From Mycobacterium sp. (GTDB lineage: Bacteria > Actinomycetota > Actinomycetes > Mycobacteriales > Mycobacteriaceae), in NCBI GenBank assembly GCA_020438845.1, contig JAGQTV010000018.1, positions 1 to 46,313 on the forward strand: a stretch of DNA of 46,313 nt. Direction: 5' to 3'. Within the stretch, counting starts at the first letter, position 1. The number at the start of each line of letters is the position of its first letter. This document shows, piece by piece, positions 23,199 to 45,916 of the stretch. The notes below the pieces were generated by a model, which saw only the letters and a program-made list of their open reading frames with translations, made no database searches and had not been told where the DNA came from. The position numbers were made by a program, and so were the translations under genes.

Positions 23199-25034
23199 TC
23201 AGAAGGCCGCTTCGTCGAGCTCCATGACCTCGTTGTCCAGCGACTCGACCACCTGACGGGTGCCGGTCAGCAGCGGCAGGAAGTTCTTGGCGAAGAACGA
23301 GCCGACGGCGACCTTGCCTTCATAGAAATTGCGGTCGGCGCCCGACGCGCCGGCGTCCAGGGCCGCGATCGCCACCGCCGCCTGACGCAGCAGCAGCCAG
23401 CCCATCACCAGGTCGCCCACGCTCATCAGGAAGCGAACCGAACCCAGGCCCACCTTGTAGATGCTCTTGGGGTCCTCCTGGGCCGCCATCAGGTAGCCGG
23501 TCAGCGCCGCCGCCATGCCCTGGACGTCCTCCAGAGCCTTGGCCAGCAGGGCCCGTTCGGTCTTGAGTCGGCCGTTTCCATCCTCGTTCTTGACGAATGC
23601 GTCGATCTGTCCGGCAACGTGCCCGAGGGCCTGGCCCTTGTCGCGGATGATCTTGCGGAAGAAGAAGTCCTGCGCCTGGATTGCCGTGGTGCCCTCGTAG
23701 AGCGAGTCGATCTTGGCGTCGCGGATGTACTGCTCGACGGGGTAGTCCTGCAGGAAGCCGGACCCGCCGTAGGTTTGCAGGCTCTCGGTGAGCTTGGCGT
23801 AGGCCTGCTCGGAGCCGACACCCTTGACGATCGGGAGCATCAGGTCATTGATCTTGAGCGCCAACTCGGGCTCGACTCCCTGGACGATCTTGGCCACCTC
23901 GGCGTCCTGGAACGTCGCGGTGAAGAGATACAGAGCCCGCAGGCCCTCGGCGTAGGCCTTCTGGGTCATCAGGCTGCGCCGGACGTCCGGGTGGTGGGTG
24001 ATGGTCACGCGCGGGGCGGTCTTGTCCATCATCTGGGTCAGATCTGCACCCTGTACGCGTTCCTTGGCGTACTCCAACGCATTGAGGTAGCCGGTCGACA
24101 GCGTGGCGATGGCTTTGGTGCCCACCATCATTCGAGCCTGTTCGATGACGTCGAACATCTGCGCGATGCCGTCGTGCACATCGCCGATCAGCCAGCCCTT
24201 GGCCGGTATCCCGTGCTGGCCGAAGGTCAGCTCACAGGTGGCCGATACCTTCAGGCCCATCTTGTGCTCGACGTTGGTGACGAAGACGCCGTTGCGCTCG
24301 CCGAGTTCGCCGGTCTCGGAGTCGAAGTGGAACTTCGGCACGAAGAATAGAGACAGGCCCTTGGTCCCCGGGCCGGCGCCCTCGGGGCGGGCGAGTACCA
24401 GGTGGAAGATGTTTTCGAAGAGATCATCGGAGTCGCCCGAGGTGATGAACCGCTTCACGCCGTCGATGTGCCAGGTGCCGTCGTCCTGCTGGACCGCTTT
24501 GGTGCGCCCGGCGCCGACATCGGAGCCGGCGTCCGGCTCGGTCAGCACCATGGTCGAGCCCCAGCCGTTTTCGGCGGCCATGACGGCCCAGCGCTTCTGC
24601 TCCTCGGTACCCAGGTGGTAGAGGATCTGGGCGAAACCGGCGCCGCCCGCGTACATCCACACAGCCGGGTTGGCGCCCAGCACGTGCTCGTGCACGGCCC
24701 ACATGAGCGCCTTCGGGGCAGGCATGCCGCCGAGTTCCTCGATCAGGCCGACCTTGTCCCAGCCGGCGTCCATGAATGTCCGGACCGACTTCTTGAACGA
24801 CTCCGGCAGTGTCACCGAGTGGGTGTCCGGGTGGAACACCGGGGGGTGACGATCGCCGTCGACGAACGAATCGGCTACCGGTCCCTCGCACAACCGGGCG
24901 GCTTCCCCCAGCATCTCGGTTGCGGTATCGACGTCCAGGTCGCTGAACGCGCCTTGACCCAGGGCCTTGTCCAGGCCGAAAACCTCGAACAGGTTGAAGA
25001 CCTGATCGCGGACATTGCTCTTGTAGTGGCCCAC
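23199..25034 (-). CDS. fadE5: Acyl-CoA dehydrogenase FadE5
   Basis: 611 residues, exactly the length of M. tuberculosis FadE5 (Rv0244c). Four-domain long acyl-CoA dehydrogenase that introduces the trans-2 double bond of acyl-CoA using FAD. Seen: FAD/substrate segment [20 protein letters not shown], helix with [20 protein letters not shown], and the catalytic glutamate at residue 447 in [10 protein letters not shown], the position reported for FadE5. The start is the GTG at 25034, matching the family N-terminus ([16 protein letters not shown]) and preceded by AGGAGGAACA; the longer 671-codon reading is rejected. A palindromic operator lies 47 bases upstream. In M. tuberculosis it faces fadA2 directly; here 6.1 kb separates them. 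Confidence 0.95.
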
Positions 25035-25374
25035 TGTTCCTCCTGAGAAATGCCACCGACGCGGTTGGGTACTCATCCATAAGTTACCCACCAGTAACTT
25101 CCTAAAGATATACCGCTTCTCTGCTGTTGGCAACCCGCGGTGCGGGTCCAGCGCGGTCAACGTCGGGCGCATTGGGCCCCTTATTTCGGCCTCCTGTGGG
25201 AGCCCAGTTCGCACCGGACTTTGCTTCCGGTGGCCGCGCGGCCGCCCACTCTCCGATTCAACATATTCGCCGCGAGTGGTTACCCTTGATCCGGACGGTT
25301 ATGGCGAGATAGCCCACAGCGCTCGACCATGACAGAGGGAACCGTCCCTGGGCTCGGATAATGAGGTAAGGATT
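25035..25374. promoter_or_regulatory. 340-bp divergent regulatory region fadE5 / pks
   Basis: No credible gene here. The fadE5 side holds the ribosome site AGGAGGA and the palindrome. On the pks side I see an inverted repeat AGGGA-ACCG-TCCCT at 25336-25349, a GATAAT -10-like hexamer at 25357-25362, and AGGTAAGG just before the TTG start. No convincing -35 accompanies the GATAAT. The central part (25110-25280) shows no clear structure. Confidence 0.45.
25081..25100. promoter_or_regulatory. Palindromic operator upstream of fadE5
   Basis: AAGTTAC-CCACCA-GTAACTT: perfect 7-bp arms around 6 bases. The core TTAC-N6-GTAA matches the palindrome between fabG4 and fadA2 (10 of 14 positions in all). 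The minus-strand TAACTT (25086-25081) can serve as a -10, placing the operator over the fadE5 promoter and predicting a leader of about 40 bases. Confidence 0.65.
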
Positions 25375-28300
25375 TTGCGCGTCGCTGCTGCTACACCAGT
25401 TGCCGTCATCGGAATGGCCTGCCGGCTCCCCGGCGGTATCGACTCCCCGGAGGCGCTCTGGGAGGCTTTGCTGCAAGGCCGGGATCTTGTGACCGAGATC
25501 CCTGATGACCGGTGGGACGTCGAAGCGTATTACGACCCCGAGCCCGGCGTTCCCGGCCGGTCGGTCACCCGGTGGGGCTCATTCCTGGACGACGTCGGCG
25601 GCTTCGATTCGGACTTCTTCGGGATGACCGAGCGTGAAGCGACGGCGATCGACCCCCAGCACCGTCTGCTGCTGGAGACTTCTTGGGAGGCCATCGAATA
25701 CGCGGGCGTGGATCCGCATGCTCTGAACGGCACCCGCACCGGTGTGTTCGTGGGGCTGACGCACACCGACTACGAATTGCTCTCCGCCGACAGCGGGGCG
25801 GCCGAGGGGCCGTACGGCTTCACCGGCACCAACCCCAGCTTCGCCTCCGGGCGGGTGTCCTACGTACTGGGTCTGCACGGTCCTGCCGTGACGGTGGACA
25901 CCGCCTGCTCGTCCGGGTTGGTCGCGCTGCACCAGGCCTGTCGGAGCCTGCACGAGGGTGAGAGCGATATGGCTCTGGCCGGCGGGATCTCGGTGACGCT
26001 GGAACCGCGCAAGTCGGTGTCCGGCTCGCTGCAGGGGATGCTGTCGCCGACCGGGCACTGCCACGCCTTCGATGTTGCCGCCGACGGGTTCGTCTCCGGT
26101 GAGGGCAGCGTCGTGCTGTTCCTCAAACGGTTGTCCGACGCCGAGCGCGACGGAGACCGCGTCTTGGCCGTCATCCGCGGCACCGCCGCCAACCAGGACG
26201 GACGCACCGTCAACATCGCAACCCCCTCCGAGACGGCGCAGATCGAGGTCTACCGCGACGCCTTGGCCGCCGCCGAGGTTGACCCGTCGACCGTCGGCAT
26301 GGTCGAGGCGCACGGCACCGGTACCCCGGTCGGTGACCCGATCGAATTCGCCAGCCTGGCGACGGTGTACGGCATCGATGAGCGGTGCGCACTCGCGTCG
26401 ATCAAGGCGAATTTCGGCCACTGTCAGTCCGCGTCCGGGACCTTGGGCGTGATGAAGGCGGTCCTCGCCCTGCAACACGCGTTGGTGCCGCAGAACCTGT
26501 TCTTCACCCGCCTGCCCGATCAGATGGCGGCCATCGACACCCACCTCTTCGTTCCGACGGCTAACACCCCGTGGCCCCACGGTGGCGACGGACCCCGGCG
26601 GGCGGCGGTCTCGTCCTACGGCATGTCCGGAACCAACGCGCACGTGGTCCTCGAGCAGGCTCCGGTCGTCGAACAGAGCGCGCTCTCTCCAGCCCCGGAG
26701 GAGCCACTGCTCTTCCCCATCTCGTCGACCTCCGAGGAGCAGCTGAGGGTCTCGGCCGGCAGGCTGGCCGACTGGCTCGAGCAGCACCAGCAGGCGTCGG
26801 AGGCGAGTAGCGGCTCGGCGCCCGACAGCGGGCTCCGCGACCTGGCCTACACCCTGGCCTGCCGGCGGGCTCATCGTCCCGTGCGCACCGCCGTCACCGC
26901 CCGAACCACCAAGGAACTGATCGCAGCGCTGCGCGAGGTTGCCGAGGGCGATCTGCCGTATCCAGCCGTGGTCGGCCGTGGTGACCGCGGACCGGTGTGG
27001 GTGTTCTCCGGCCAGGGCTCGCAGTGGGCCGGCATGGGTGCGGACCTCCTCGCTACCGAACCGGTCTTCGCCGCCACCATTGCTGTGATCGAGCCCATCA
27101 TCGCGCGCGAATCGGGCTTCTCAGTGACCGAGGCGATGACCGCAGGCGAGAAGGTCACCGGAATCGACCGAGTCCAACCCACGATTTTCGCGATGCAGGT
27201 CGCGATGGCCGAGACGTTGAAGTCCTACGGCGTGCAGCCGGGCGCGGTCATCGGCCACTCGCTGGGCGAGTCCGCGGCCGCCGTCGTTGCCGGCGCGCTC
27301 ACGCTGGAGGACGGCCTGAAGGTCATCTGCCGTCGTTCGAAGCTGATGAAGCGAATCTCCGGCAGTGGTGCCATGGCGGCAGTGGAACTGCCTGGTCCGC
27401 AGGTGCTTTCGGAACTGTCCGTCCGCGGCATCAAGAATGTCGTGCTCGCGGTGGCGGCATCCCCGACGTCCACCGTCATCGGCGGTGATACCCAGGCCGT
27501 CCGGGAACTGGTGGAGCACTGGGAAGCGAACGGGGTGATGGCTCGCGAGGTCGCCGTCGACGTCGCCTCGCACTCGCCCCAGGTTGAGCCGATTCTCGAC
27601 GACCTGATCGAGGCGCTCGCCGACCTCGAGCCGCAGGACCCTGAGGTGCCTTACTACTCCTCGACGCTTTGGGATCCCCGCGACCGGCCTGGCTTCGACG
27701 CCGACTACTGGTCGGAGAACCTGCGCTACACCGTGCGCTTCGCATCGGCGGTGCAGGCGGCCCTCAACGACGGATTCCGGGTCTTCGGTGAGCTCGCGCC
27801 CCATCCGCTGCTCACCCATGCCGTCGACCAGAACGCGAGCAGCCTGGACATGCCGATCGCCGCGCTGGCCTCGATGCGCCGCGAACAGGATCTGCCGGTG
27901 GGTCTGCGCGGATTCGTGGCCGATCTTCACAGCGCCGGTGCCGCAATCGATTTCACCGCCATGTACCCCGAGGGCGGATTGGTGGATGCCCCACTGCCGG
28001 CCTGGACCCACCGGGAGCTGATGCTCAGCCGGGAAGACCAGGACCATCCTGGCCACGGCAGCGCGGTGGTTTCAGTGCATCCGCTGCTCGGTGCGCACGT
28101 CCATCTCGACGAAGAGCCGCCCCGGGATGTCTGGCAGGGCGAGGTCGGTACCGACGTACACCCCTGGCTGGCCGACCACATGATCCACAACATCGCAGCG
28201 CTGCCGGGCGCGGCCTACTGCGAGATGGCGTTGGCCGCGGCTGCCGCGGTCCTCGGCGAGGGCGCGGAGGTGCACGACATCCGTTTCGAGCAGACGTTGC

Positions 28301-31300
28301 TGCTCGACGACCAGACGGCCATCTCCGCTGCGGCCAGTGTGCAGTCACCCGGTGTCCTCGCCTTCTCGGTGAGTACCCAGGACGAGGGACAGCGGACCGG
28401 CCGGGCGGCCGCGACGCTGTGCGCGGCGGGGTCGGAGTCGGAGCCTGGCGCGCCGTCGTACGATATCGAAGCGCTGGTGGCCCAGCATCCGGTCCGCGCC
28501 GACGGCGCCGACCTTCGGGCCGCGTTCGACTCGGTCGGTATCCAGTACGGCCCGGCCTTCTCGGGACTGACCGCCACCTACACCGCCGCCGGTGAGGTCG
28601 ACAGCGTCCTCGCCGAGGTGGCGCTGCCCAGCGCCATTCGGTCACAGCAGTCGGTCTACGGGGTCCACCCTGCCCTTCTCGACGCGTGCTTCCAGTCCGT
28701 GGTGGTGCACCCGACGGTGCAGAACGCCGGATCCGGCGGCCTGTTGCTGCCGGTGGGAGTCCGCCGGTTGCGGTTACACCACCCGGCGCGCAACGCCCAC
28801 TACTGCCTCACCCGCGTCACGCAGACACGGGCCGGTGAGTGCGAGGCCGACATCGAGGTGATGGACCAGGCCGGAGCTGTGCTGCTCAGCGTCGAGGGGC
28901 TGCGGATGTCCGCCGGTGTCTCTGAAGCCGAGCAGGCCAACCGGACGCTCAACGAGCGACTGCTCACCATCGAGTGGGAACCGCGCGAGCTGCCCGACAC
29001 GCAGAAAGACGGCCGCTGGCTGGTTTTCAGCACCGCCGACGCCGCTGATCCACTGGCCCGCCAGATCACCGACGCCATAAATACCGCTGCGGTGGAGGGG
29101 GCTTCGACATGCGCCGCACGGTGGGAGAGGCTGGACGATCCGGCGCGCATCCGCACCGAGTTGGCGGCCAGCACTGTCGCCGAGCCGTATACCGGCCTCG
29201 TGCTCGTGACGCCTCCTGCCGCCGGGCCGGCCGACGGTTCGACCGCCATGCGCGGGCGTGATCAGGTAGCCCTGCTGGTGAAGGCGGCCTGCCAACTTGC
29301 CGAGCTGCCTGGTGAGCCGCCGCGGTTGTTCGTGGTCACCCGCAACGCCGCGACGGTGTCGGCCGGGGAGTCGGCCAACCTGGAACAGGCGGGGTTGCGC
29401 GGGTTGATGCGGGTCATCGATTCCGAACACCCGCATTTGAAAACGACGGCGATCGACACCGATGACACCACCGACGCGGCCCTCGTGACGCGCCAGCTGC
29501 TGTCCGGGTCAGACGAGGACGAGACGGCCTGGCGGGACGGCCAGTGGTATTCGGCCCGCTTGCTGCGCGGACCGCTGCGGCCGGCTGACCGGCGCACCAC
29601 TCTGGCGGACCCTGCCAGCGAGCGGATACGCCTGGAGGTTCGGACGCCGGGCGACGTCGAGTCGTTGGAATTCGTCGTCGCCGACCGGCCGCAGCCCGGC
29701 CCGGGGCAGATCGAGGTCGCGGTGACGGCCTCGAGCATCAACTTCGCCGACGTTCTGGTGGCCTTCGGTCGATATCCCACCTTCGAGGGCTACAAGCAGC
29801 AACTCGGTATCGATTTCGCCGGCATCGTGACTGCGGTCGGGCCGGGAGTCACCGAACATCGGGTCGGCGACCACGTCGGAGGTATGTCGCCCAACGGCTG
29901 CTGGTCGACGTTCGTCGTCTGCGATGCCCGTCACGCCGTGACCGTGCCGACGGCCATCCCGCTGACCGAGGCGGCTTCCATCCCGACCGCCTCGGCGACA
30001 GCCTGGTACAGCCTGCATGACCTGGCCCGCATCAGCAGTGACGACAAGGTGCTGATCCACTCGGGCACCGGAGGCGTCGGGCAGGCGGCAATCGCGATCG
30101 CCCGAGCGGCCGGGTGCGAGATCTTCGCCACCGCCGGTAGCCCGGAGCGTCGAGAAGTGCTGCGCGAGATGGGAATCGAGCACGTCTACGACTCGCGCAG
30201 CCTGACCTTCGCCGACGAGATCCGGCGGGACACCGGCGGCTACGGCGTCGACGTGGTGCTCAACTCGCTGCCCGGAGCCGCCCAGCGGGCCGGGGTGGAA
30301 CTACTCGCCTTCGGCGGGCGGTTCATCGAAATCGGCAAGCGTGACATCTATGGCGACACCCGGCTCGGATTGTTCCCATTCCGCCGCAACCTGTCGTTCT
30401 ACGCCGTAGACCTGGCGTTGCTGACGCACAGCCATCCGGCGGTCGTTCAGCGGTTGTTGACCACGGTGTACCAGCAGACCGCTGACGGCGTGCTGCCGAT
30501 ACCGCCCACCACTCATTTCCCGATCGCAGATGCCTCGACGGCCGTCCGGTTGGTCGGCGGTGCCGGCCACACCGGCAAGGTGCTTCTGGACGTGAGTGGA
30601 AGTATCAGGGCTCACCACGGCAAGGTTCCGGCGGTGCTGTCACCGGCCGATGTTCCGGTCTTCCGTACCGACGGGTCGTACATCGTCACCGGCGGCCTGG
30701 GCGGGCTCGGCCTGTTCCTGGCCGGCGAGATGACCTCGGCCGGGTGTGGACGGATCGTCCTGAACTCGCGGTCGGCGCCGGGCGCGGAGGCGCAGGAGGC
30801 CATCGAGAAACTGCGGGCCGGCGGTGCCGATGTGCAGGTCGTCAGTGGAGACATCTCGGATCCGACAGTCGCCGAGACCTTGGTGGCCGTCGCCACCGAA
30901 ACCGGTCTGCCGGTCCGCGGCGTGCTGCACGGTGCGGCGGTGGTCGAAGACGCCACCTTGACCAACATCACCGACACTCTGCTCGGCCACTGCTGGGAGC
31001 CAAAGGTGGCCGGCGCGTGGAACCTCCACGAGGCGACGCTGGGGCAGCCCCTGGACTGGTTCTGCTCGTTCTCGTCGGCTGCCGCCTTGGTTGGATCGCC
31101 CGGTCAGGGTGCCTACGCCGCGGCCAACAGCTGGCTGGACGCCTTCTCGCGCTGGCGGCACGCGCAGGGCCTGCCCGCCACGGCGATCGCCTGGGGCGCG
31201 TGGTCCCAGGTTGGACGCGGCATGGCGCTGGCCGAGGGCACCGGCATCGCCATCGAACCGGCCGAGGGAGCGCAAGCCTTCGAGACGCTGCTGCGCTACG

Positions 31301-31707
31301 ACCGCCCCTACAGCGGCTATGCGCCGATCATCGGAACCCCCTGGTTGACTGCGTTCGGTCAGCGCAGCAAGTTCGCCGAGGCGTTCCAGTCAGCAAACTC
31401 CGCACAGAGCGACAGCGGCAAGTTCCTGGCGGAGCTGCGGGCGGTCGTCCCGGAGGAGTGGCCCGGAATCATCCGCAAGATGGTCTCGGACCAGTTGAGC
31501 CTTCTGCTGCGTCGCAACATCGACCCGGACCGGCCGTTGTCCGACTACGGCCTGGACTCGCTGGGCAACCTCGAACTGCGCACTCGGATCGAGACCGAGA
31601 CCGGTGTCCGGATCGGCCCGACTCAGATCACCACTGTGCGCGGGCTCGCAGATCACCTCTGCGAGGAGCTCCAGCAACGCGAGGCGATACCAGCATCCGC
31701 GGGTTAG
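25375..31707 (+). CDS. pks: Type I polyketide synthase, single MAS-like module (KS-AT-DH-ER-KR-ACP)
   Basis: 2110 residues, the length of mycocerosic acid synthase and Pks5. Domains in order: KS with Cys about 178 (VDTACSSG) and His in VEAHGTGTP and [14 protein letters not shown] with [12 protein letters not shown], nucleophile in IGHSLGES (about 627) and VASH near 729, a motif typical of branched-extender rather than malonyl ATs; DH with [13 protein letters not shown] (about 929); ER with [11 protein letters not shown] (about 1562); KR with VTGGLGGLG and [23 protein letters not shown] with [11 protein letters not shown] (Ser about 2062). There is no thioesterase, as in MAS. All reductive sites look intact, so each cycle should give a saturated, probably methyl-branched unit. 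TTG start. It begins pks-papA-mmpL; the acyl primer would come from the FadD at 38251. Confidence 0.93.
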
Positions 31708-31753
31708 ACAGCTACCCTGCAGTTGGGCATGCCCGTTCATTGAGGAGAAGACA

Positions 31754-33211
31754 ATGCGAGTTGGGCCATTAGAAATCGGCTCGATCACCGACTGGTCGCC
31801 TGTCGACGGTCCAGTGGTGATGTGGCAGCCGACTGCCAGATCGCTGGCGAAGTTGTCGCAGGCTCCGGTCAGCTCGGTGCCGGTGGGCTACATGCAAGCC
31901 CAGCACATCCGAGGGTACTGCTCACAGCGCGATAAAGGGCTGGATTACTCGCGATTGATGGTCGTCAGCTGCGACGCGCCCGGAGTGTGCGACATCCGGG
32001 CGATGACCTACGTCGTCAACGCGCATCTGCGGCGACATGACACCTACCGCAGCTGGTTCGAATACCACCCCACAGTCGACGGCTACGGCGACATCGTTCG
32101 CCACGCAATCGACGATCCGCGGGACATCGAGTTCGCCCCGGTCAAACACGGGGAGATGGGCATCGACGAGCTGCGCGATCTCGTCGTGAACATTCCCGAT
32201 CCGCTCAACTGGGATTGTTTCCGGTACGGCATCGTCCAGGGCCCGGACAGCTTCACCTTTTTCGCCAGCATCGATCACGTGCACGTCGACGCCATGATCG
32301 TCGGGGTCACGCTGATGGAGTTCTTCATGATGTACTCGGCACTGGTGGCCGGTGGTGCGCCTCTGGAACTCCCGCCTGCCGGAAGTTACAGCGACTTCTG
32401 TGAACGGCAGAACGCCTACACCTCGGCCCTGACCACCGAATCACCCGAGGTCCGCAAGTGGGTCGACTTCGCTCGCGCGAACCACAACACCCTGCCCGCC
32501 TTCCCGCTGCCGCTGGGTGACCCCGAGGTGCGGTGGGGATCGGCCATCGCGACCATGCCGGTGATGGACGAGCAGCAAATGATGCGGTTCGAATCGGCTT
32601 GCACCGCAGCGGGCGCCCGTTTCATCGGTGGCGTATTCGCCTGCATCGGCCTGACCGAGCATGAACTCACCGGTTCTGATTTCTACTACGCCGTCACTCC
32701 GAAGGACACCCGGCGCGACTTCACCGACTCAATGACCCAGGGCTGGTTCACCGGCCTCATCCCGGTCTCTGTGCCCATCCGGAACCAGTCGTTCGCCGAA
32801 GCCGCCCGGGCGGCCCAGGCGTCCTTCGACAACGCGCGGTCGATGGCGGAACTGCCCTACGACCGCGTCGTGGAGTTGGACCCCACGCTGAGTGGCCCGC
32901 CACCCAACTTCCCGGTGATCAACTTCCTCGACGCGGGCACTGCTCCGCTTTCGGCGTTGCTGACGGCCGAACTGGGCGACCTGCATGTCGGGGTGTTCAG
33001 TGACGGGCGGTATTCCTACCAGCTGTCGATCTACATCGCGCGCGTTGCCGACCAGACCGCCGTGTCGGTGATGTACCCGGACAATCCGGAGGCGCGCAGG
33101 TCGGTCGATCGGTTTGTCGCGGCGCTGAAGTCGGTCTTCCAGACTGTGGCGGAGCGCGGTGACTGGGACGTCCTGACTTGCGCTGCCTTGGCCTGCGATG
33201 ACGTTGCCTGA
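31754..33211 (+). CDS. papA3: Polyketide-associated acyltransferase (PapA)
   Basis: 485 residues, condensation-like acyltransferase (PapA3 about 472). The catalytic HxxxD is H175-V-H-V-D179 in [11 protein letters not shown]. Its N-terminus [16 protein letters not shown] resembles PapA proteins of the trehalose lipid loci. It should transfer the PKS-made chain, or a starter fatty acid, to a hydroxyl of trehalose or another sugar in the cytoplasm. ATG at 31754 follows GAGGAG; the open frame upstream is only the PKS tail in another frame. It sits 46 bases after pks and 17 bases before mmpL. The papA3 name is by locus position, not proof of substrate. Confidence 0.85.
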
Positions 33212-33228
33212 CGCCCTTTCGTGGTGCG

Positions 33229-36200
33229 GTGAGTGAGCTGACCGGAGGGGGGTTCTTCGGCTGGTTAGGACGTCTCGTCGTTCGTTGGCCGTGGGCGGTC
33301 ATCGCCATCTGGCTGCTGGTTGCGGCCGCGGTCTCCACGACTGTGCCGCCCCTGGCCGAGATGTCGCAGCGCAATCCCGTTGCGCTGCTGCCGGCCGATG
33401 CCCCTTCCAATGTGGCCACCCGCCAGATGAACGACGCGTTCAAGGACTCGGGTGCGGACAACATTCTGGTGGTGCTGCTCACCGACAATAAGGGGCTGAG
33501 CGGCGACGACGAAGCGGTCTACCGGCGGCTGGTCGACCGGCTGCGGCAGGACACCACGAATGTGGTGATGCTGCAGGACTTCATCAGCGCACCGCCGCTC
33601 CGTGAGGCCCTGGCGAGTAAGGACGGCCAAGCCTGGATCCTGCCGGTCGGTCTGTCCGGCGAACTGGGGACACCGAAGGCCTACAACGCATACATGCACG
33701 TGGTCGGCCTGGTGGACGACACGCTGAAGGGCTCGTCGTTGTCGGCGCGGATGACGGGGCCGGCGGCGACGGTTGCGGACCTCACCGATGCCGGAGCCCG
33801 CGACCGGATGCCCATCGAGGTGGCGATCGCGGTGCTGCTCCTGGTGATTCTGGCGATCATCTACCGAAATCCGGTGACGATGCTGCTTCCGCTGCTCACC
33901 ATCGGTGCGTCCCTGGTGAGCGCCCAAGGGCTGATCTCGGCCGTGTCGCTGACCACCGGCTTGCCGATCTCCAACCAGGCGATCGTGCTGCTGAGTGCGA
34001 TGATCGCCGGCGCGGGAACCGACTACGCCGTCTTCCTGATCAGCCGGTACCACGACTACATGCGTGGCGGCGACGACAGCGATACCGCGCTGCAAAAGGC
34101 CTTGCCCTCGATCGGGAAGGTGATTGCCGCCTCGGCGGCTACCGTCGGCGTCACCTTCCTCGGAATGGGACTGGCCAAATTGGGGCTGTTCTCCACCACC
34201 GGGCTGTCGCTGGCCATGGGCATCGGCACCGCGTTCGTCGGCGCGGTGACGCTGTTGCCCGCCGTCATGGTCCTGGCCGGGCGTCGCGGCTGGATCAAGC
34301 CGCGGCCCGAACTCGCGGCCCGGTTCTGGCGGCGCATGGGCATCCAGGTGGTGCGTCGGCCCCGCGCATACCTGGCGGCCAGCCTTGTGCTGCTGCTCGC
34401 GCTGGCGGCGTGCGCGAGCCTGGTGCGGTACAACTATGACGACCGCAAGGTGCTCCCGGCCGCGATGGAGTCGTCTGTCGGGTACGACCTGCTGGATCAG
34501 CACTTCGACGCGAACCACACCATCCCGCAGTATCTGGTGATCCAGTCCTCGCGTGATCTGCGCACCCCCCGTTCGCTGGCGGAGTTGGACCAGTTGGCTC
34601 AGCGTGTCAGCCAGGTCCCGGGCGTCCATGCGGTACGAGGGGTGACTCGCCCTACCGGTGAGACCATTCCGCAGGCCAAGGCGACCTATCAGGCCGGCAA
34701 GGTCGGTGAGGAACTGGCCAGCGCCTCAGGTCTGATCGCAGCGCGCTCATCGGACCTGAACCGGTTGTCCTCCGGTGCCCGCCAGCTGGCGAACGGACTC
34801 GGCGATGTCCAGGGCCAGGTCAACCAGGCTGTCGGCAACGTCTCCAGCATCATCGACTCGCTGGCCTACGTCCAGGGCCTGGCCGGCGGTGAGGCGACCT
34901 TCGAGGAGATCGACAAGGCCGCCCGGCTGGTCGACGGCCTGCGCATGCTCGGTGACATTCTGCAGGTCAAGTTCGCCGGTTACACCTACAAGCTCGACTG
35001 GATCGACCCCGTCGTCATCGCACTCGACACCAGTCCCTACTGCACCTTCAATCCGGTGTGCGCGACCGCCCGGGACCAGTTCCACAAACTCCAGAACGCC
35101 CGCGACGCCGGATTGCTCGACGGGGTCCTCAAGCTGGGTACGGAGTTGAGCGCCGCCCAGCCGGTGACGTCCGTCGCTTCGACCGTGCGCCGCCTCAGCG
35201 CTGCTCTGCAGACCGTGGTGAATTCGCTTCGCGCGTTGGGTGTGTATGACGCGTCGACCGCCCGGGCTCGGCTTTACACCGTGCAGGGCGGCGCCGATAA
35301 GCTGGCCAGCGCCAGCAGCCAGATCGCCGATGGTGTCGAATTGCTGGTGAACCAGACCAAACTCGTGGGCAGCGGCTTGGACAGCGCCTCATCGTTCCTC
35401 GAGGCGATGGGCCAGGATGCCGCCAGCCCGGCCATGTCGGGCTTCAACATCCCGCCCGAGGTTCTGCGCTCCGATGAGTTCCGCAAGGCGGCAAAGGTAT
35501 TCGTCTCCCCAGACGGCCATGCCGTCCGCTACCTGGTCCAGACTGACCTGAACCCATTCAGTACCCAGGCGATGGATCAGGTGAACGCCATCCTGGCCGC
35601 CGCCAGAGGCGCGCTGCCGGGTACCTCGCTCAGCGATGCGAAGGTGTCGTTGTCCGGCTATCCGGTGACACTGCGCGACACCCGGGACTACTACAACCGG
35701 GATTTGCATCTGATCATCGTCGTGACCATCGTGGTGGTGCTGCTGGTCCTGATGATCCTGCTGCGGGCAGCAGTGGCGCCGCTATACCTCGTCGGATCGG
35801 TCATCCTGTCCTATCTGTCAGCCGTTGGCCTCGGGGTGCTGGTCTTCCAATTCCTGCTGCACCAGGAATTGCATTGGAGCGTGCCTGGATTGACGTTCGT
35901 GGTACTGGTGGCGGTCGGAGCGGACTACAACATGCTGCTCGCCTCGCGACTACGCGACGAGGCAGCCAACGGCCTGCAGCGCCTCGGCGTGATCCGAACC
36001 GTTCGATCGACCGGGGGTGTCATCACCGCGGCCGGATTCATTTTCGCCGCCTCGATGTTTGGCCTGCTCTTTTCGAGCATCACGACGATTGTGCAGGCGG
36101 GGGCGATAATCGGAATGGGGATTTTGCTCGACACCCTGCTGGTGCGCACGATCACCGTGCCCGCGGTCGCCACACTTCTGGGCAATCTGAGCTGGTGGCC

Positions 36201-36270
36201 GGCCAAGCTGCGTCCCACTCGACCGGAACCGGCTGAGCCGCCCAAACCCACTGTCTTCGAACAGGTCTGA
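33229..36270 (+). CDS. mmpL10: MmpL-family RND lipid transporter
   Basis: 1013 residues with the MmpL layout: first membrane span ([17 protein letters not shown]), a large periplasmic domain, spans 2-6, span 7 near residue 385, a second periplasmic domain of about 320 residues, and spans 8-12. The proton-relay Asp-Tyr pairs are present in both halves: D265-Y266 in [14 protein letters not shown] and D899-Y900 in [12 protein letters not shown]. It should export the glycolipid precursor made by Pks/PapA to the periplasm. MmpL10 of M. smegmatis occupies the matching place in the trehalose polyphleate locus. GTG at 33229 has no clear ribosome site and lies 17 bases after papA. Its end faces the Chp-like gene. 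Confidence 0.88.
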
Positions 36271-36307
36271 CCGGCTGAACAGCTTCGGCCAGGACCAAGC
36301 CGCCGGC

Positions 36308-37471
36308 CTACCCGAAGGCGGAAAGGATTTCCCGGTACTGGGCGAATTGCTCGTCGATGGCGGCCTGCGACTGCGGATCGAGAACCGCGATGGGATCCAT
36401 GCCGTTGGGGTCCACCGTGACGGGATGGTCCGGGTTGTCGTTGCGGGAGTATCCCGCATCGATGATCGGCTGGAGGGCTCCGTCGATCATGTCCACTGTC
36501 CCGTCAGGTATGCCGAGGTAGCGCAGCGGCAGGGTCAGTGGCAGATGATTGATCGGGATCAGGAAGGACGTCGTCTGTGCGCCTTTGGAGTTCACTTCGG
36601 TTTTGATGTTCTGCGGCGGGACGACCTCGGGGGTGGTGAATGCCGCTGAGGTGTGGACGATCGTCGACCCGGCGATGGCATTGGCGACGGCAAACGGGTT
36701 CTCCGGCCGGTCCGGGAAGTCGGCCAGGCCGTCGTACGCCGCGACGATCCTGTTGGCGTCGTACTGGCTGTCCACCTTCTTGGGCATGGTGTAGTCGATC
36801 AGCGGGATGTACTCTCCTGGCCCGAAGATGCCGGCCAGGAAGCTCTTGCTGAGTCCGTTTGTGCTGGTCGGATCGCCGATCGTGGTGAAGGTGAGCTGGT
36901 CGCGTGGCGGGGCTTTCGGATCACCGGCAAGGCGGACCTGCTCCTGGTCGAGGGCCAGGGTGCCCTGTGACAGGCCGACGACGGCCACATCAGTCCCGAT
37001 GCCGTTCCAAATGGCTCGATTCAGGCTGTTGGTTGCGTCGGTCGCGGCTTCTCCGATGGTGACGTTGTCGCGCGGCCCCGGTGGCAGCAGTCCCTGCGGC
37101 ATCCAACTGAACGGCGCGCCGGCGGGATAATCGATCAGATCGCGACGGGAATCCGGGAACCAGCCCAGCCCGGCGCGCATCGTGTATTCGACCCAGGGGA
37201 TGCCCGGCGCGCGGGCACCGCCAAGGGCGTAGACGACAGGAGCGTCGGAGCCGTGGACGAGTGGTGACGGGGTCGGCCATGCCGCCTCGGCGGCATACGG
37301 GCCCGCGCCCGGCTGGGGCACGGGTTGCCAGGGCGTCCACGTGTCGGCGGCCGCCGCCCCAGTGCCAAGTCCCCCGGATGCTCCGAAAAGACCAAGGGTG
37401 AGCATCCCGGCGATCGTTCGCCTGGTTACCGCGCGTCCCGGGATCTTCCGGCCGGGAATCCGTCGAGTCAT
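36308..37471 (-). CDS. Secreted PE-PPE-domain serine hydrolase/acyltransferase (Chp-like)
   Basis: 387 residues. The export signal has a twin-arginine look (VTRRTIAGMLTLGLFGASGG, cut near AAAA-DTW), followed by a PE-PPE (alpha/beta hydrolase) domain with nucleophile elbow VVGLSQGTLALDQ. M. tuberculosis Chp1 and Chp2, which move acyl chains between acyltrehaloses outside the membrane, share this domain and locus type, and the M. smegmatis counterpart carries out the last step of trehalose polyphleate assembly. The same transesterification is inferred here. The ATG at 37471 is preferred to a TTG at 37489 because GGAGGGAGGG precedes it. It is the last gene of fadD > gap-like > chp-like and is convergent with mmpL. 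Confidence 0.82.
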   Translation of the reverse strand: MTRRIPGRKIPGRAVTRRTIAGMLTLGLFGASGGLGTGAAAADTWTPWQPVPQPGAGPYAAEAAWPTPSPLVHGSDAPVVYALGGARAPGIPWVEYTMRAGLGWFPDSRRDLIDYPAGAPFSWMPQGLLPPGPRDNVTIGEAATDATNSLNRAIWNGIGTDVAVVGLSQGTLALDQEQVRLAGDPKAPPRDQLTFTTIGDPTSTNGLSKSFLAGIFGPGEYIPLIDYTMPKKVDSQYDANRIVAAYDGLADFPDRPENPFAVANAIAGSTIVHTSAAFTTPEVVPPQNIKTEVNSKGAQTTSFLIPINHLPLTLPLRYLGIPDGTVDMIDGALQPIIDAGYSRNDNPDHPVTVDPNGMDPIAVLDPQSQAAIDEQFAQYREILSAFG

Positions 37472-37554
37472 GCAGCGCCCTCCCTCCAACGAAACACGCT
37501 ACCGCACCGCACACGATGCGCAGACGGGCAAGAGGCCCAAACGGCCCGCCACCG

Positions 37555-38235
37555 TCAGCTTGTGAGGATGCCGACCGTGAGCAACACGCAGCCGATGATG
37601 GCCAGCGTGAGGGCCAGAGCGGTCCTGCGGTTGGCGGCGAACCAGCCGTTGAGCCGGGCCATGGCGTCCCGTGTCGGCTCCGGGGCGAACACGTAGGCGA
37701 CCAGCGGGACTTCCACAAGTGCGAAGGCCACGATGTTGAACATCACCAGTGCGCCGATCTGCTGAACTGCCGAGGCTTCGGAGGCCAGGATCACCGCCAG
37801 CGCGGCAAGGTAATCGATCGAGGGCAGGGCGATCCCCAGACCAGCGACTCCGGCGACCCATGGGCTCTTGGCGCTCATGAGCCGCCGTGCTTGCCGGGCG
37901 AACCGCCCGGGTTCGGAATCGGGTTCCGGACCGGATTTTGGACCGAACCGCTGGAGGAGGGCCAGGACCACGGCTGCCACCAACGCGACGATGCCTATCC
38001 CGATCTGCACTTTGGGCACGGTGAAATAGGTTCCGTGGCCGGCTCCCGCGTCGGCCACCGGACGCAGCCCGAACAGCACGATCAGGCCGACCGTGATTCC
38101 CATCAGGAATCCGCCGAACAAGAAAGCCAGCAGGTCGACGACCGGCCGGGGACGATTCAGCATCAGCACCGTCATCCCCAGCCGGAACGGCTCGCTGCTC
38201 ACGGCCAAAGCCATGACGAGGACGGTCAGCCACAT
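37555..38235 (-). CDS. GAP / sulfolipid-addressing family membrane protein
   Basis: 226 residues with six hydrophobic spans in two groups of three, split by a polar segment (GPKSGPEPDSEPGRFARQAR, about 99-118). It begins MWLTVLVMALAVSSEPFRLG, the pattern of the GAP/Sap family (PF11139) that helps MmpL proteins move glycopeptidolipids, sulfolipid and related lipids across the membrane. ATG at 38235, 15 bases after the fadD stop, so it is co-transcribed with fadD; the chp-like gene follows 83 bp later. Role by family and neighbourhood. Confidence 0.85.
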   Translation of the reverse strand: MWLTVLVMALAVSSEPFRLGMTVLMLNRPRPVVDLLAFLFGGFLMGITVGLIVLFGLRPVADAGAGHGTYFTVPKVQIGIGIVALVAAVVLALLQRFGPKSGPEPDSEPGRFARQARRLMSAKSPWVAGVAGLGIALPSIDYLAALAVILASEASAVQQIGALVMFNIVAFALVEVPLVAYVFAPEPTRDAMARLNGWFAANRRTALALTLAIIGCVLLTVGILTS

Positions 38236-38250
38236 GGCCGGCGGCCCCGG

Positions 38251-39984
38251 TCAGCTGCCCAAGCGGGTGAACTGCTGTCCCAGGTAAAGGTCGCCACAGG
38301 CTGCGCGACGAATCTTGCCGCTCGTCGTGGTCGGAATGGAGCCCGGGGCCACCAGAACCAGGTCGGCGGCAGTCAGCCCATGGGCGCGGGCGATCGCAGC
38401 TGTCACGTCGTTGATGGCGGATTCGACAGGATCCGACCCCTCGGTGTTGCGCGGCGTCCTGTACTCGATGATCAAGACCAACTTCTCGGTCTCCCCGGCT
38501 GTGACCGAGATAGCCGCGACCCGGCCGCGGGTGATCTCGCTGACGGTGGACTCGATGTCCTCCGGGTAATGGTTGCGCCCGCGGATGATGAGGATGTCCT
38601 TCATCCGTCCCACGATGAACAGCTCACCGTCGGTGAAGAAGCCGAGGTCGCCGGTACGCAGCCACGGTCCGGCCGGCGTACCCGGGGATGGGTCGCGAAG
38701 CACGCCTCCAAAGGTCTTCTCGCTCAGCTCCGGCTTGTTCCAGTAGCCCGGCGCGACATTGGGCCCCTCGGTCCAGATCTCACCCACCGTGCCTTCCGGC
38801 ACCTCCACAAGCGTGTCCGCGTCGACGATGCGAACGACGGGTGATTGCGCTGCGCCGTAGCTCAGCAGCGGGATGCCACCGGGGGCTTTGCAGAGTTCGG
38901 CCCGATCGGCGGCCAGGCGTTCTGCGTCGAAGTTCACTACCTTCGGGGGACCGGGTATCGTCCGGCACGCCACGAACACCGTGGCCTCGGCCAGCCCGTA
39001 GGACGGCCGGAACGCCTCGGAGTTGAAGCCGAACTTGGCGAACCGGTCGGCGAAACGCTTCAACGTCGTGGGGTGGATTCGCTCGGCACCGCAGGTGATC
39101 CCCATGACTCCGCTGAGATCAAGCCCTGCCATGTCCTCGTCGGTGATCTTTGCCGCGGCCAGCTCCAAGGCGAAGTTCGGGGCCGCCGACCAGGTATGGG
39201 GATAGGCGGCCAAGGCGTGAAGCCAGCGGGCGGGCCGTTGCAGGAAGGACATCGGACTGGACAGGTGGCCGTGCAACCCACCCAGAATCGGGCACACGAT
39301 GCCCTGCACCAGGCCCATGTCGTGGTAGAACGGCAGCCACGACACCACCGTGGTGCCGGCCGGGGCGATCCCCGAGGTCGTCGGGAAGTAGCTGGCCATC
39401 AGCTGGCGGAAGTTCGAGTCGAGGTTGGAGTGGGTAATGATCACACCGGCCGGGGTTCGGGTCGACCCAGAGGTGTACTGCAGGTAGGCGATCTCGGGCA
39501 GCCCGTCGATCCGCATCCGCCCGCCGCCACGGGCATCCAGGTCCAGGGAGTCCACTTCGATGACCGCGGCGTTCTCCGCTCCGCTCGCGCGCCCTACGTA
39601 CTCGTGGACGATCTCCGAGCTGGCGGACGTCGTGAGCACCACGGCCGGTGCAGTGTCGGCGATGACGGCGCTGACTCGGTCGTCATGCGAGCCGGCAAAC
39701 GGCAGCGGGAGCGGTACCGCGATGAAGCCGGCGAGCATGGAGCCCAGGAAAGCCGTGACGTAGTCCATGCCCTGAGGAGCGAGAATGACCGCACGCTCAC
39801 CGGTCGTGCCGTGCTTGGCCACTTCTCGGGCCAGGTTCTGGGTGCGGCGGAACAGCTGTGACCAGGTGACGTCTTCGGACTTGCCGGCCCAGTCCGTGTC
39901 ATAGTCGACGTAGGTGAACGCGATGTCGTCGGGTTGAAGACCCGCGCGCTCCTGCAACGTGGAAAGAACAGATGCCTCGGACAC
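38251..39984 (-). CDS. fadD23: Fatty acyl-AMP ligase, FadD23-like
   Basis: 577 residues (FadD23 about 584). Adenylation motifs: YLQYTSGSTRTPAGVIITHS, PSYGLAEATVFVACR, LRTGDLGFFTDGELFIVGR, and the C-terminal lysine in TTSGKIRRAACGDLYL. These, with HYPEDIESTV, are those of long-chain fatty acyl-AMP ligases (FAALs) that load PKSs, not CoA ligases. It should activate the fatty acid primer and hand it to the Pks at 25375. GTG at 39984. It heads the minus-strand operon that converges on pks-papA-mmpL and diverges from the flavin reductase across 85 bp. The name is assigned from locus type. Confidence 0.87.
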   Translation of the reverse strand: MSEASVLSTLQERAGLQPDDIAFTYVDYDTDWAGKSEDVTWSQLFRRTQNLAREVAKHGTTGERAVILAPQGMDYVTAFLGSMLAGFIAVPLPLPFAGSHDDRVSAVIADTAPAVVLTTSASSEIVHEYVGRASGAENAAVIEVDSLDLDARGGGRMRIDGLPEIAYLQYTSGSTRTPAGVIITHSNLDSNFRQLMASYFPTTSGIAPAGTTVVSWLPFYHDMGLVQGIVCPILGGLHGHLSSPMSFLQRPARWLHALAAYPHTWSAAPNFALELAAAKITDEDMAGLDLSGVMGITCGAERIHPTTLKRFADRFAKFGFNSEAFRPSYGLAEATVFVACRTIPGPPKVVNFDAERLAADRAELCKAPGGIPLLSYGAAQSPVVRIVDADTLVEVPEGTVGEIWTEGPNVAPGYWNKPELSEKTFGGVLRDPSPGTPAGPWLRTGDLGFFTDGELFIVGRMKDILIIRGRNHYPEDIESTVSEITRGRVAAISVTAGETEKLVLIIEYRTPRNTEGSDPVESAINDVTAAIARAHGLTAADLVLVAPGSIPTTTSGKIRRAACGDLYLGQQFTRLGS

Positions 39985-40063: not shown

Positions 40064-40555
<492 letters not shown>

Positions 40556-40649: not shown

Positions 40650-41219
40650 TCAACGTAGCGGATCAGGCGGCGTGGGCAAGCCCTGCTCGATGGGGATATC
40701 GAAGGCGACCACCGTGTAGCCCATGATCGCGTACAGCCCACACAACACGACCACTTCGACCACCCCGGCGTTTCCGTAGGCGGCGACTATCCGATCCTGA
40801 ACCTCAGCGGGAATCGACCTGTGTGCAACCACCGCGTCGACCGCCTGCAGGACGGCCCGCGACACGTCGGGGAGATCGGCCGGGATATCGCCCGCAGTCA
40901 CTTCGGTGATCGTTTCGGTGGACAGGCCTGCCAATCTGGCCGGGTGCTGATGGTGGCTCCATTCGTAGCCGAAGCCTTGACGGGCCGCATACCGCAGAAT
41001 CGCCAACTCGCGAACCGTATCGGGCAGCCTGCCGTGGAAACGAATCTGCTCCCCGAGCGCTCCGACTTTGGCAGCCAGAGCGGGGTTGTTGAACATCCGG
41101 ACGTACACCTCGCCGAGCTGGGCACGTCCTTCCGCGTGGGCCCGTATCGATGCCATCTGGTCGTAAGCGGCCTTGGCCTCGGCGTCGAGCTGGTCAGTCG
41201 GATCCGGCAATTGCGCCAT
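40650..41219 (-). CDS. Carboxymuconolactone decarboxylase-family protein
   Basis: 189 residues, all-helical AhpD/CMD fold. The characteristic helix reads RELAILRYAARQGFGYEWSH followed by HQHPARLAGLS, with the EW-x-x-H arrangement but no CxxC, so it is CMD-like rather than a peroxidase of the AhpD type. The substrate is unknown. ATG at 41219 shares its first base with the stop codon of the ThDP enzyme gene (TGATG), so the two are made together and likely act on successive intermediates; this recalls aromatic-acid or keto-acid breakdown modules. Convergent with the flavin reductase. Confidence 0.8.
   Translation of the reverse strand: MAQLPDPTDQLDAEAKAAYDQMASIRAHAEGRAQLGEVYVRMFNNPALAAKVGALGEQIRFHGRLPDTVRELAILRYAARQGFGYEWSHHQHPARLAGLSTETITEVTAGDIPADLPDVSRAVLQAVDAVVAHRSIPAEVQDRIVAAYGNAGVVEVVVLCGLYAIMGYTVVAFDIPIEQGLPTPPDPLR

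Positions 41220-43200: not shown

Positions 43201-45916
<2,716 letters not shown>

What the first reader, a model, noticed from the sequence alone, without database searches (positions are those of the whole stretch)
25375..39984. Acyltrehalose-type glycolipid locus with a single MAS-like PKS in the place of the trehalose polyphleate locus
Seen: pks-papA-mmpL facing fadD(FAAL)-gap-chp, all complete, next to fadE5. Known: M. smegmatis has its trehalose polyphleate genes beside fadE5, and phleic acids have regularly spaced double bonds, which need two kinds of reductive cycle; as I recall that PKS is much larger than this one. Here the PKS is one 2110-aa module with intact DH, ER and KR and a VASH-type AT, as in mycocerosate and phthioceranate synthases. 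Inference: this organism makes a saturated, probably methyl-branched acyltrehalose-like lipid from this site, possibly undescribed.
Basis: partly seen in the sequence, partly recalled or inferred. Interest (0 to 1): 0.72.

Follow-up and report, generated by a model that had tools for sequence, protein, structure and literature searches.

The report
Swappable mycobacterial surface-lipid gene cassette
A set of genes for what is probably a methyl-branched trehalose surface lipid sits exactly where many related bacteria carry a different trehalose-lipid gene set, and genome comparison indicates that the two sets have replaced each other at this one chromosomal site.

Summary
Window 25375-39984 holds an intact PKS-PapA-MmpL operon facing FAAL-Sap-PE, beside fadE5. 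The PKS is one KS-AT-DH-ER-KR-ACP module of the MAS/Pks2 kind with a VASH acyltransferase motif; trehalose-polyphleate (TPP) PKSs have two modules with HAFH motifs and are 38-41% identical over KS-AT. A phleate synthase is excluded by sequence; a methyl-branched product is likely; 'saturated' cannot be inferred.

The locus falls in a clade of single-module loci whose M. simulans and M. lepromatosis members carry a FadD21-class ligase, so it works like the M. tuberculosis DAT/PAT locus, though its own ligase misses the FadD21 cut-off.

New here: between fadE5 and a flavin reductase, 135 relatives are empty (70), TPP-type (55), window-type (3) or other (7). The cassette genes of the six window-type loci at this site are one clade, but on fadE5 the six fall separately among TPP-type genomes (AU p 7e-62). 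Mycolicibacterium sp. P1-18 and a relative about 91% identical on both flanks carry opposite cassettes, joined at gene ends. The site looks like an exchange site for outer-membrane glycolipid cassettes. No lipid was measured; direction and driver are open.

The parts
23199..25214 (-). fadE5, acyl-CoA dehydrogenase; left flank of the site
   Evidence: Pfam Acyl-CoA_dh domains; matches in 142 of 148 genus genomes at E<=1e-290
25375..31707 (+). single-module MAS/Pks2-type iterative polyketide synthase, KS-AT-DH-ER-KR-ACP, 2110 aa
   Evidence: NF041183 3436.6 bits over cut-off 2400, a family that the genome's second MAS-like PKS also passes
31754..33211 (+). PapA-type acyltransferase (start at 31754 is my choice; the ORF opens at 31604)
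   Evidence: Condensation domain; PapA2 structure 6aef at 494.9 bits; HX3DX14Y motif read (motif recalled)
33229..36270 (+). MmpL transporter, MmpL10-like
   Evidence: MMPL domain, tree
36308..37471 (-). PE/Chp-type acyltransferase (PE-PPE domain; start is my choice)
   Evidence: PF08237; NF041570 314.1 bits, under cut-off 580
37555..38235 (-). Sap/GAP-type membrane protein
   Evidence: PF11139 SfLAP, 201 bits
38251..39984 (-). fatty-acyl-AMP ligase (FAAL), FadD21-like
   Evidence: NF004509 890.4 over cut-off 775; NF038337 FadD21 918.6 under cut-off 1100
40070..40555 (+). flavin reductase (FlvR); right flank of the site
   Evidence: PF01613; lies 0.8-6.4 kb from fadE5 in the 70 empty sites

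Best explanation
The locus is a complete acyltrehalose cassette that works like the DAT/PAT locus of M. tuberculosis. Inferred by homology: the FAAL puts an acyl-AMP starter on the PKS; the single module extends it over several rounds with methylmalonyl-CoA to a methyl-branched acid; PapA esterifies trehalose twice; MmpL exports the diacyltrehalose; the PE/Chp enzyme moves acyl groups between molecules outside the membrane to a polyacyltrehalose; Sap assists. Shown by sequence: the gene set, the single MAS-type module, the AT motif, the clade. Second, also shown by sequence: the cassette lies between fadE5 and a flavin reductase, the site that holds the TPP cassette in 55 of 135 relatives, and the two cassette types have replaced each other more than once. 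That this happens by homologous recombination in the conserved flanks is inferred.
For: PKS: one module; in a KS-AT tree of 38 rows it groups with the 14 other A-type (single-module) PKSs at support 100 and apart from 18 TPP modules; KS-AT identity to the six TPP modules printed is 37.7-40.5%, to the 12 other A-type loci printed 62-76%. AT motif: HAFH in 17 of 18 TPP domains (the other is cut short), VASH in 10 of 15 A-type rows including the window. FAALs of M. simulans (1126.9) and M. lepromatosis (1165.4) pass the FadD21 cut-off. Site: 70 empty, 55 TPP-type, 3 window-type, 7 other of 135. Cassette genes: A-type is one side of a branch for MmpL (100), PapA (99) and PE (99); MmpL of 53 T and 6 A site loci splits cleanly at 100. 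Flanks: fadE5 5' DNA (138 rows) needs and, on starred branches, forces 6 separate A placements; in a 38-row subset the count is 6 (5-95% of 200 bootstrap trees: 6-6) and one A clade is rejected, AU p 6.8e-62; FlvR DNA (86 rows) needs 5 changes, AU p 4.4e-66. P1-18 (A) against G137 (T): 91.4% over 1.9 kb on the left, 91.1% over 2.06 kb on the right, different cassettes between, similarity ending at the stop codon of the left gene and resuming about 20 bases before the FlvR start; beyond FlvR 90% (G137, 5.5 kb) and 93% (G035, 4.8 kb). The 318 A-T pairs have mmpL DNA identity 60.2-70.2% even where fadE5 identity reaches 96.7%. The window's five best core-flank matches by bits among 147 other genomes (G106, G003, G009, G018, G043) are TPP-type.
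Against: No lipid data. The window FAAL misses the FadD21 cut-off and scores no higher than a TPP-type FAAL (918.6 against 976.0 for L082); the PE misses the NF041570 cut-off; in the FAAL tree A-type is not one clade (2 changes, weak branches). No M. tuberculosis sequence was obtained, so orthology to Rv1180-Rv1185c was not tested directly. PKS hits in G001, G046 and G038 are as close to the window over KS-AT (75-77%) as A-type loci and could not be fetched, so they are missing from the tree; no labelled Pks5 or MAS gene was in it either. The background rests on flanking DNA (0.5-5.6 kb), not whole-genome trees. The TPP-type regions were read to 20 kb only, short of FlvR, so a second cassette further right would have been missed, except in G137, where FlvR follows the TPP-type Sap directly. 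The nearest loci to the window, MAG fragments L051 and L052, are A-type too, so any exchange in the window's own lineage is older than their split. Many A-type loci are not beside fadE5. Mycolicibacter A-type rows show VAAH (2) or no motif match (3, one of them lacking the domain in the stretch scanned).
Confidence: 0.76

Rival explanations
1. Differential loss: an ancestor carried both cassettes at the site (or the single-module cassette was ancestral) and lineages lost one or the other; no exchange between lineages.
For: Loss is common: 70 of 135 sites are empty, and G054 and G052 hold remnants (PKS piece and Sap; Sap only). P1-18 and G055 cassettes diverge about as much as their fadE5 (mmpL 83.4%, fadE5 85.8%), as vertical descent of A in that lineage would give.
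Against: No site read holds both types (TPP-type regions read to 20 kb). Among the 60 genomes the listed MAS-like KS-AT hits of the TPP-type genomes do not lie by fadE5. At least 6 separate placements would need both cassettes kept in tandem through many nodes. TPP cassettes also travel: G053-G024 fadE5 82.5% but mmpL 92.8% and papA 93.7%; G124-G021 84.2% but 93.5% and 91.2%.
Confidence: 0.14
2. Only flanks moved: the fadE5 and flavin reductase genes were exchanged between species and the cassettes are inherited vertically.
For: The background was judged from flanking DNA only.
Against: Both flanks and up to 5.5 kb beyond agree for P1-18 with G137 and G035; for the window a stretch 3-12 kb left of fadE5 agrees as well.
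Confidence: 0.05
3. Only the PKS gene was swapped in a TPP locus.
For: Same site; homologous PapA, MmpL, PE, Sap and FAAL in both types.
Against: MmpL, PapA and PE of the A-type loci form their own clades too, and gene order differs.
Confidence: 0.02
4. The cassette makes another lipid, for example the acyl part of a lipooligosaccharide (Pks5/PapA4/MmpL12 kind) or a sulfated acyltrehalose.
For: MAS-like PKSs of several lipids are close, and none labelled Pks5 was in the tree.
Against: No sulfotransferase, second PapA or glycosyltransferase among the nine proteins examined from fadE5 to the TPP-enzyme gene; SL-type loci form other clades; the PE/Chp and FAAL partners fit acyltrehaloses.
Confidence: 0.1

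Closest known systems
DAT/PAT locus of M. tuberculosis (pks3/4, papA3, mmpL10, chp2, fadD21)
   Same: Gene set (PMC4183827 passages) and, as recalled, convergent order; single MAS-type module; sister loci in M. simulans and M. lepromatosis pass the FadD21 cut-off
   Different: Lies between fadE5 and the flavin reductase; has a Sap gene (recalled as absent from the M. tuberculosis locus); FAAL under the FadD21 cut-off
Trehalose polyphleate locus (pks, papA3, mmpL10, PE, fadD23)
   Same: Same chromosomal site with fadE5 and flavin reductase; homologous PapA and MmpL (48-54% and 49-57% to the window protein at the sites)
   Different: TPP PKS: two modules, HAFH motif, divergent from papA; separate clades
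Sulfolipid-1 locus (pks2, papA1, mmpL8, chp1, sap, papA2, fadD23, stf0; composition recalled)
   Same: PKS-PapA-MmpL facing PE and Sap, as in the SL-like locus L102
   Different: No Stf0 or second PapA by the window locus; separate clades for MmpL and PapA
Capsule and O-antigen loci that are exchanged through conserved flanking genes (recalled)
   Same: Alternative surface-molecule cassettes between fixed flanking genes, scattered on the tree of the flanks
   Different: Here the cassettes make lipids, and two filled types were seen at the site

Membership tests
TPP locus | two-module PKS, one module without DH and ER | tested here: not met
   one module, 2110 aa, against 3689 aa with two KS and one DH, one ER
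TPP locus | malonyl-type AT motif HAFH | tested here: not met
   VASH in the window; HAFH in 17 of 18 TPP AT domains; what the motifs mean is recalled
TPP locus | PE over the NF041570 cut-off | tested here: not met
   314.1 bits against 580; a TPP-type fragment from M. chelonae scores 573.2, itself just under
TPP locus | position between fadE5 and the flavin reductase | tested here: met
DAT/PAT locus | single MAS-type PKS with PapA, MmpL, PE/Chp and FAAL in convergent order | tested here: met
   the order in M. tuberculosis is recalled
DAT/PAT locus | FAAL over the FadD21 cut-off (NF038337, 1100) | tested here: not met
   918.6; L055 1126.9 and L064 1165.4 pass, L056 1057.8 and L059 1003.5 do not
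DAT/PAT locus | direct orthology to Rv1180-Rv1185c | not tested
   no M. tuberculosis sequence among the loci obtained
DAT/PAT locus | product di- and polyacyltrehalose | not testable with these tools
   needs lipid analysis
SL-1 locus | Stf0 trehalose sulfotransferase and second PapA in the locus | tested here: not met
   none among nine proteins examined; compare L102, where Stf0 is present

The most novel reading that the evidence does not exclude
The fadE5-to-flavin-reductase interval is a general exchange site of fast-growing mycobacteria, like a capsule or O-antigen locus: whole glycolipid cassettes (polyphleate, or methyl-branched acyltrehalose) are swapped through the conserved flanks and switch the main trehalose lipid of the outer membrane; phages that need polyphleates may be one force that keeps both alleles in circulation.
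Probability: 0.4. Interest if true: 0.75.

Novelty: new variant of a known kind. Interest (0 to 1): 0.58.

Why it matters
Polyphleates are needed by the therapeutic phages BPs and Muddy to infect M. abscessus (PMC10465359, passages) and are surface lipids with effects on clumping and fitness. If mycobacteria exchange the polyphleate cassette for a methyl-branched acyltrehalose cassette at a fixed site, surface lipid type, and perhaps phage range, can change in one recombination step, and the type of a species could be predicted by reading one interval. It also gives sister pairs (P1-18 against G137 and G035) in which the effect of the two lipids can be compared on a nearly equal background, and bears on where the DAT/PAT locus of the tubercle and leprosy bacilli came from.

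Tried and rejected
Phleate synthase: rejected. PKS-only swap: rejected. NCBIfam NF041183 (Pks2) as proof of a sulfolipid PKS: rejected, because the genome's second MAS-like PKS passes it too, and it rang in no control over the cut-off. PDB comparison to separate MAS from Pks2 kinds: not decisive (window 2744.6, L278 2977.1, L002 2648.5, L102 2821.5 bits to MAS). M. tuberculosis references: not obtained. Direction of exchange: not settled; the P1-18/G055 pair and the T cassette of G137/G035 (closest to G090 after each other by mmpL, 79.6 and 81.2%, while fadE5 is closest to G112) hint that T entered the G137/G035 lineage. Plasmid search with the locus: two short Streptomyces PKS matches only. 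Composition: cassette GC 66.9% against 68.0 and 65.9% in the window flanks, uninformative. Literature: searches listed no title or abstract on exchange of these loci; the TPP paper of 2016 (Burbaud and others) is not held, so prior notice there cannot be excluded.
Full report
What is there. The window is contig 111 of a 4.53-Mb genome in 118 contigs. From left to right: fadE5 (23199-25214, -), a 2110-aa polyketide synthase (25375-31707, +), PapA (to 33211, +), MmpL (33229-36270, +), then on the other strand a PE/Chp-type acyltransferase, a Sap/GAP-type protein and a fatty-acyl-AMP ligase (to 39984), and a flavin reductase (40070-40555, +).

The PKS. Pfam finds KS, AT, DH, ER, KR and ACP once each. 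It matches MAS structures over its whole length (9d2y, 2744.6 bits). In a KS-AT tree of 38 rows the window groups with 14 other single-module PKSs at support 100, far from the 18 TPP modules. The AT motif is VASH in the window and in 10 of 15 A-type rows; two Mycolicibacter rows have VAAH and three gave no match (one of these lacked the domain in the stretch scanned). It is HAFH in 17 of 18 TPP domains, the last being cut short. By the usual reading of these motifs (recalled), the window PKS takes methylmalonyl-CoA and phleate synthases take malonyl-CoA. So methyl branches are likely. Saturation is not: Pks3/4 is credited with mycosanoic and mycolipenic acids (PMC4183827, passages).

Which known locus it resembles. 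I call the single-module convergent loci A-type and the TPP-type loci T. Of 80 named loci with the nearest MmpL homologues, 11 have the A-type plan with a complete single-module PKS (M. palauense, M. simulans, Mycolicibacterium sp. P1-18, M. uberis, M. rhizamassiliense, five Mycolicibacter-like genomes, M. lepromatosis), and three MAG fragments (L051-L053) agree as far as they go. MmpL, PapA and PE trees each put A, T and SL-like loci on separate branches; the FAAL tree does not hold A together (2 changes, weak branches). NCBI's FadD21 model passes the FAALs of M. simulans (1126.9) and M. lepromatosis (1165.4) over its cut-off of 1100, but not those of P1-18 (1057.8), M. heraklionensis (1003.5) or the window (918.6); two T FAALs score 900.7 and 976.0. 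So the A clade is of the DAT/PAT kind, and the window is a divergent member by phylogeny that fails one curated test. I say that it works like a DAT/PAT locus and do not file it as one.

The site. For 141 other genus genomes with fadE5 placed I fetched 135 stretches of up to 20 kb outward from the fadE5 5' end. State of the site: 70 empty, with the flavin reductase 0.8-6.4 kb from the start of the stretch; 55 T; 3 A (G014, G055, G067), all three with the flavin reductase on the right; 3 cut by a contig end after a PKS on the T strand; 2 with neither cassette nor reductase found; 2 with remnants (G054, G052). In the named set, M. palauense and P1-18 also have fadE5 beside the A cassette, and P1-18 has the reductase on the other side. 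No site read showed both types, with the limit that T regions mostly end before the reductase. Other A loci lie elsewhere: M. simulans and M. lepromatosis, recognised in the unnamed set as G023 and G075 by equal contig lengths, have an empty fadE5 site.

Exchange. If the cassettes were inherited with their surroundings, the six A loci at the site should be neighbours on a tree of the flank. On fadE5 5' DNA (138 rows: 6 A, 58 T, 74 empty or unclear) they need 6 separate placements, and the well-supported branches force all 6. In a 38-row careful tree the count is 6 with a 5-95% bootstrap range of 6-6, and a single A clade is rejected (AU p 6.8e-62). The other flank, the flavin reductase (86 rows, 6 A including L051, 8 T), needs 5 changes and rejects one clade too (p 4.4e-66). 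MmpL of the same loci (53 T, 6 A) splits into two clades at 100. Over 318 A-T pairs mmpL DNA identity stays at 60.2-70.2% while fadE5 identity ranges up to 96.7%.

The clearest case is P1-18 (A) against G137 and G035 (T). Left of the cassette P1-18 is 91.4% and 93.3% identical to them over 1.9 kb. Right of it, it is 91.1% identical to G137 over 2.06 kb, and further out 90% (G137, 5.5 kb) and 93% (G035, 4.8 kb), against 83-87% for the A-type G055. Similarity stops at the stop codon of the left-hand gene and resumes about 20 bases before the start of the flavin reductase. Between the joints lie about 15.5 kb of A cassette in P1-18 and a T cassette of about 19.3 kb in G137 (from the coordinates). 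The left-hand extra gene present in P1-18 and G137 is absent in the window, where the cassette starts close to fadE5 as in its T-type relatives G003 and G106: flank structure follows the lineage, not the cassette.

For the window itself, DNA 2-17 kb from the cassette on the left gives as best matches by bits G106 (80%), G003 (79%), G009, G018 and G043, all T-type; the matches cover different parts of the query, and an empty-site genome (G013) comes at tenth place. The nearest loci of all, however, are the A-type MAG fragments L051 and L052, so an exchange here is older than their split. T cassettes move as well: G053 and G024 are 82.5% identical in fadE5 but 92.8% in mmpL and 93.7% in papA; G124 and G021 84.2% against 93.5% and 91.2%.

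Limits. No whole-genome tree, no lipid data, no M. tuberculosis sequence, no labelled Pks5 or MAS in the tree. KS-AT hits in G001, G046 and G038 (75-77%) are as near to the window as A-type loci and could not be fetched. Direction of exchange is open, with hints that T entered the G137/G035 lineage.

Meaning. Polyphleates are required for infection by phages BPs and Muddy (PMC10465359, passages), and the TPP precursor is itself a diacyltrehalose exported by MmpL10 and transacylated by PE (PMC12183618 and PMC11633156, passages). A and T cassettes therefore share the chemistry after the PKS, and the exchange mainly changes the acyl chain. That phage pressure drives it is a guess. Paper searches listed nothing on such an exchange; the 2016 TPP paper could not be read.

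Noticed in passing
L102:2092-20876 (M. wolinskyi) and L126: Sulfolipid-like loci in fast-growing mycobacteria: single-module PKS, PapA, MmpL, PE, Sap, second PapA, FAAL; in L102 also a trehalose 2-sulfotransferase Stf0 (NF047724, 449.8 over cut-off 400). One paper search found none holding both 'sulfolipid' and 'Mycobacterium wolinskyi'.
   Followed up: partly
L063:10028-23019 (M. colombiense NS-7390): Apparent hybrid locus: MmpL falls in the single-module clade and PE is 65% identical to the window's, next to a TPP-type PapA and the start of a two-module PKS; no FAAL hit in the stretch.
   Followed up: partly
L192 (G054) and L190 (G052): Remnants between fadE5 and the flavin reductase: PKS pieces plus part of Sap, and Sap alone; probably decayed cassettes.
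   Followed up: no
L165, L191 and others (G024, G053, G124, G021): TPP cassettes much more alike than their fadE5 flanks, pointing to transfer of TPP cassettes between lineages.
   Followed up: partly
G000:C91:45499-70994 and C86:24012-30224 (L002): The window's genome also has five KS-bearing PKS stretches in 25 kb (PpsA-E-like by recall) and a second MAS-like PKS beside a PapA-like gene, 59% identical. The search with the window PKS showed no TPP-like two-module PKS elsewhere.
   Followed up: no
window 41219-42928 and 43201-45567: A thiamine-diphosphate enzyme and a catalase-peroxidase KatG-like gene (by sequence, named from recall) follow the flavin reductase; in L051 the KatG-like gene follows it directly.
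   Followed up: no
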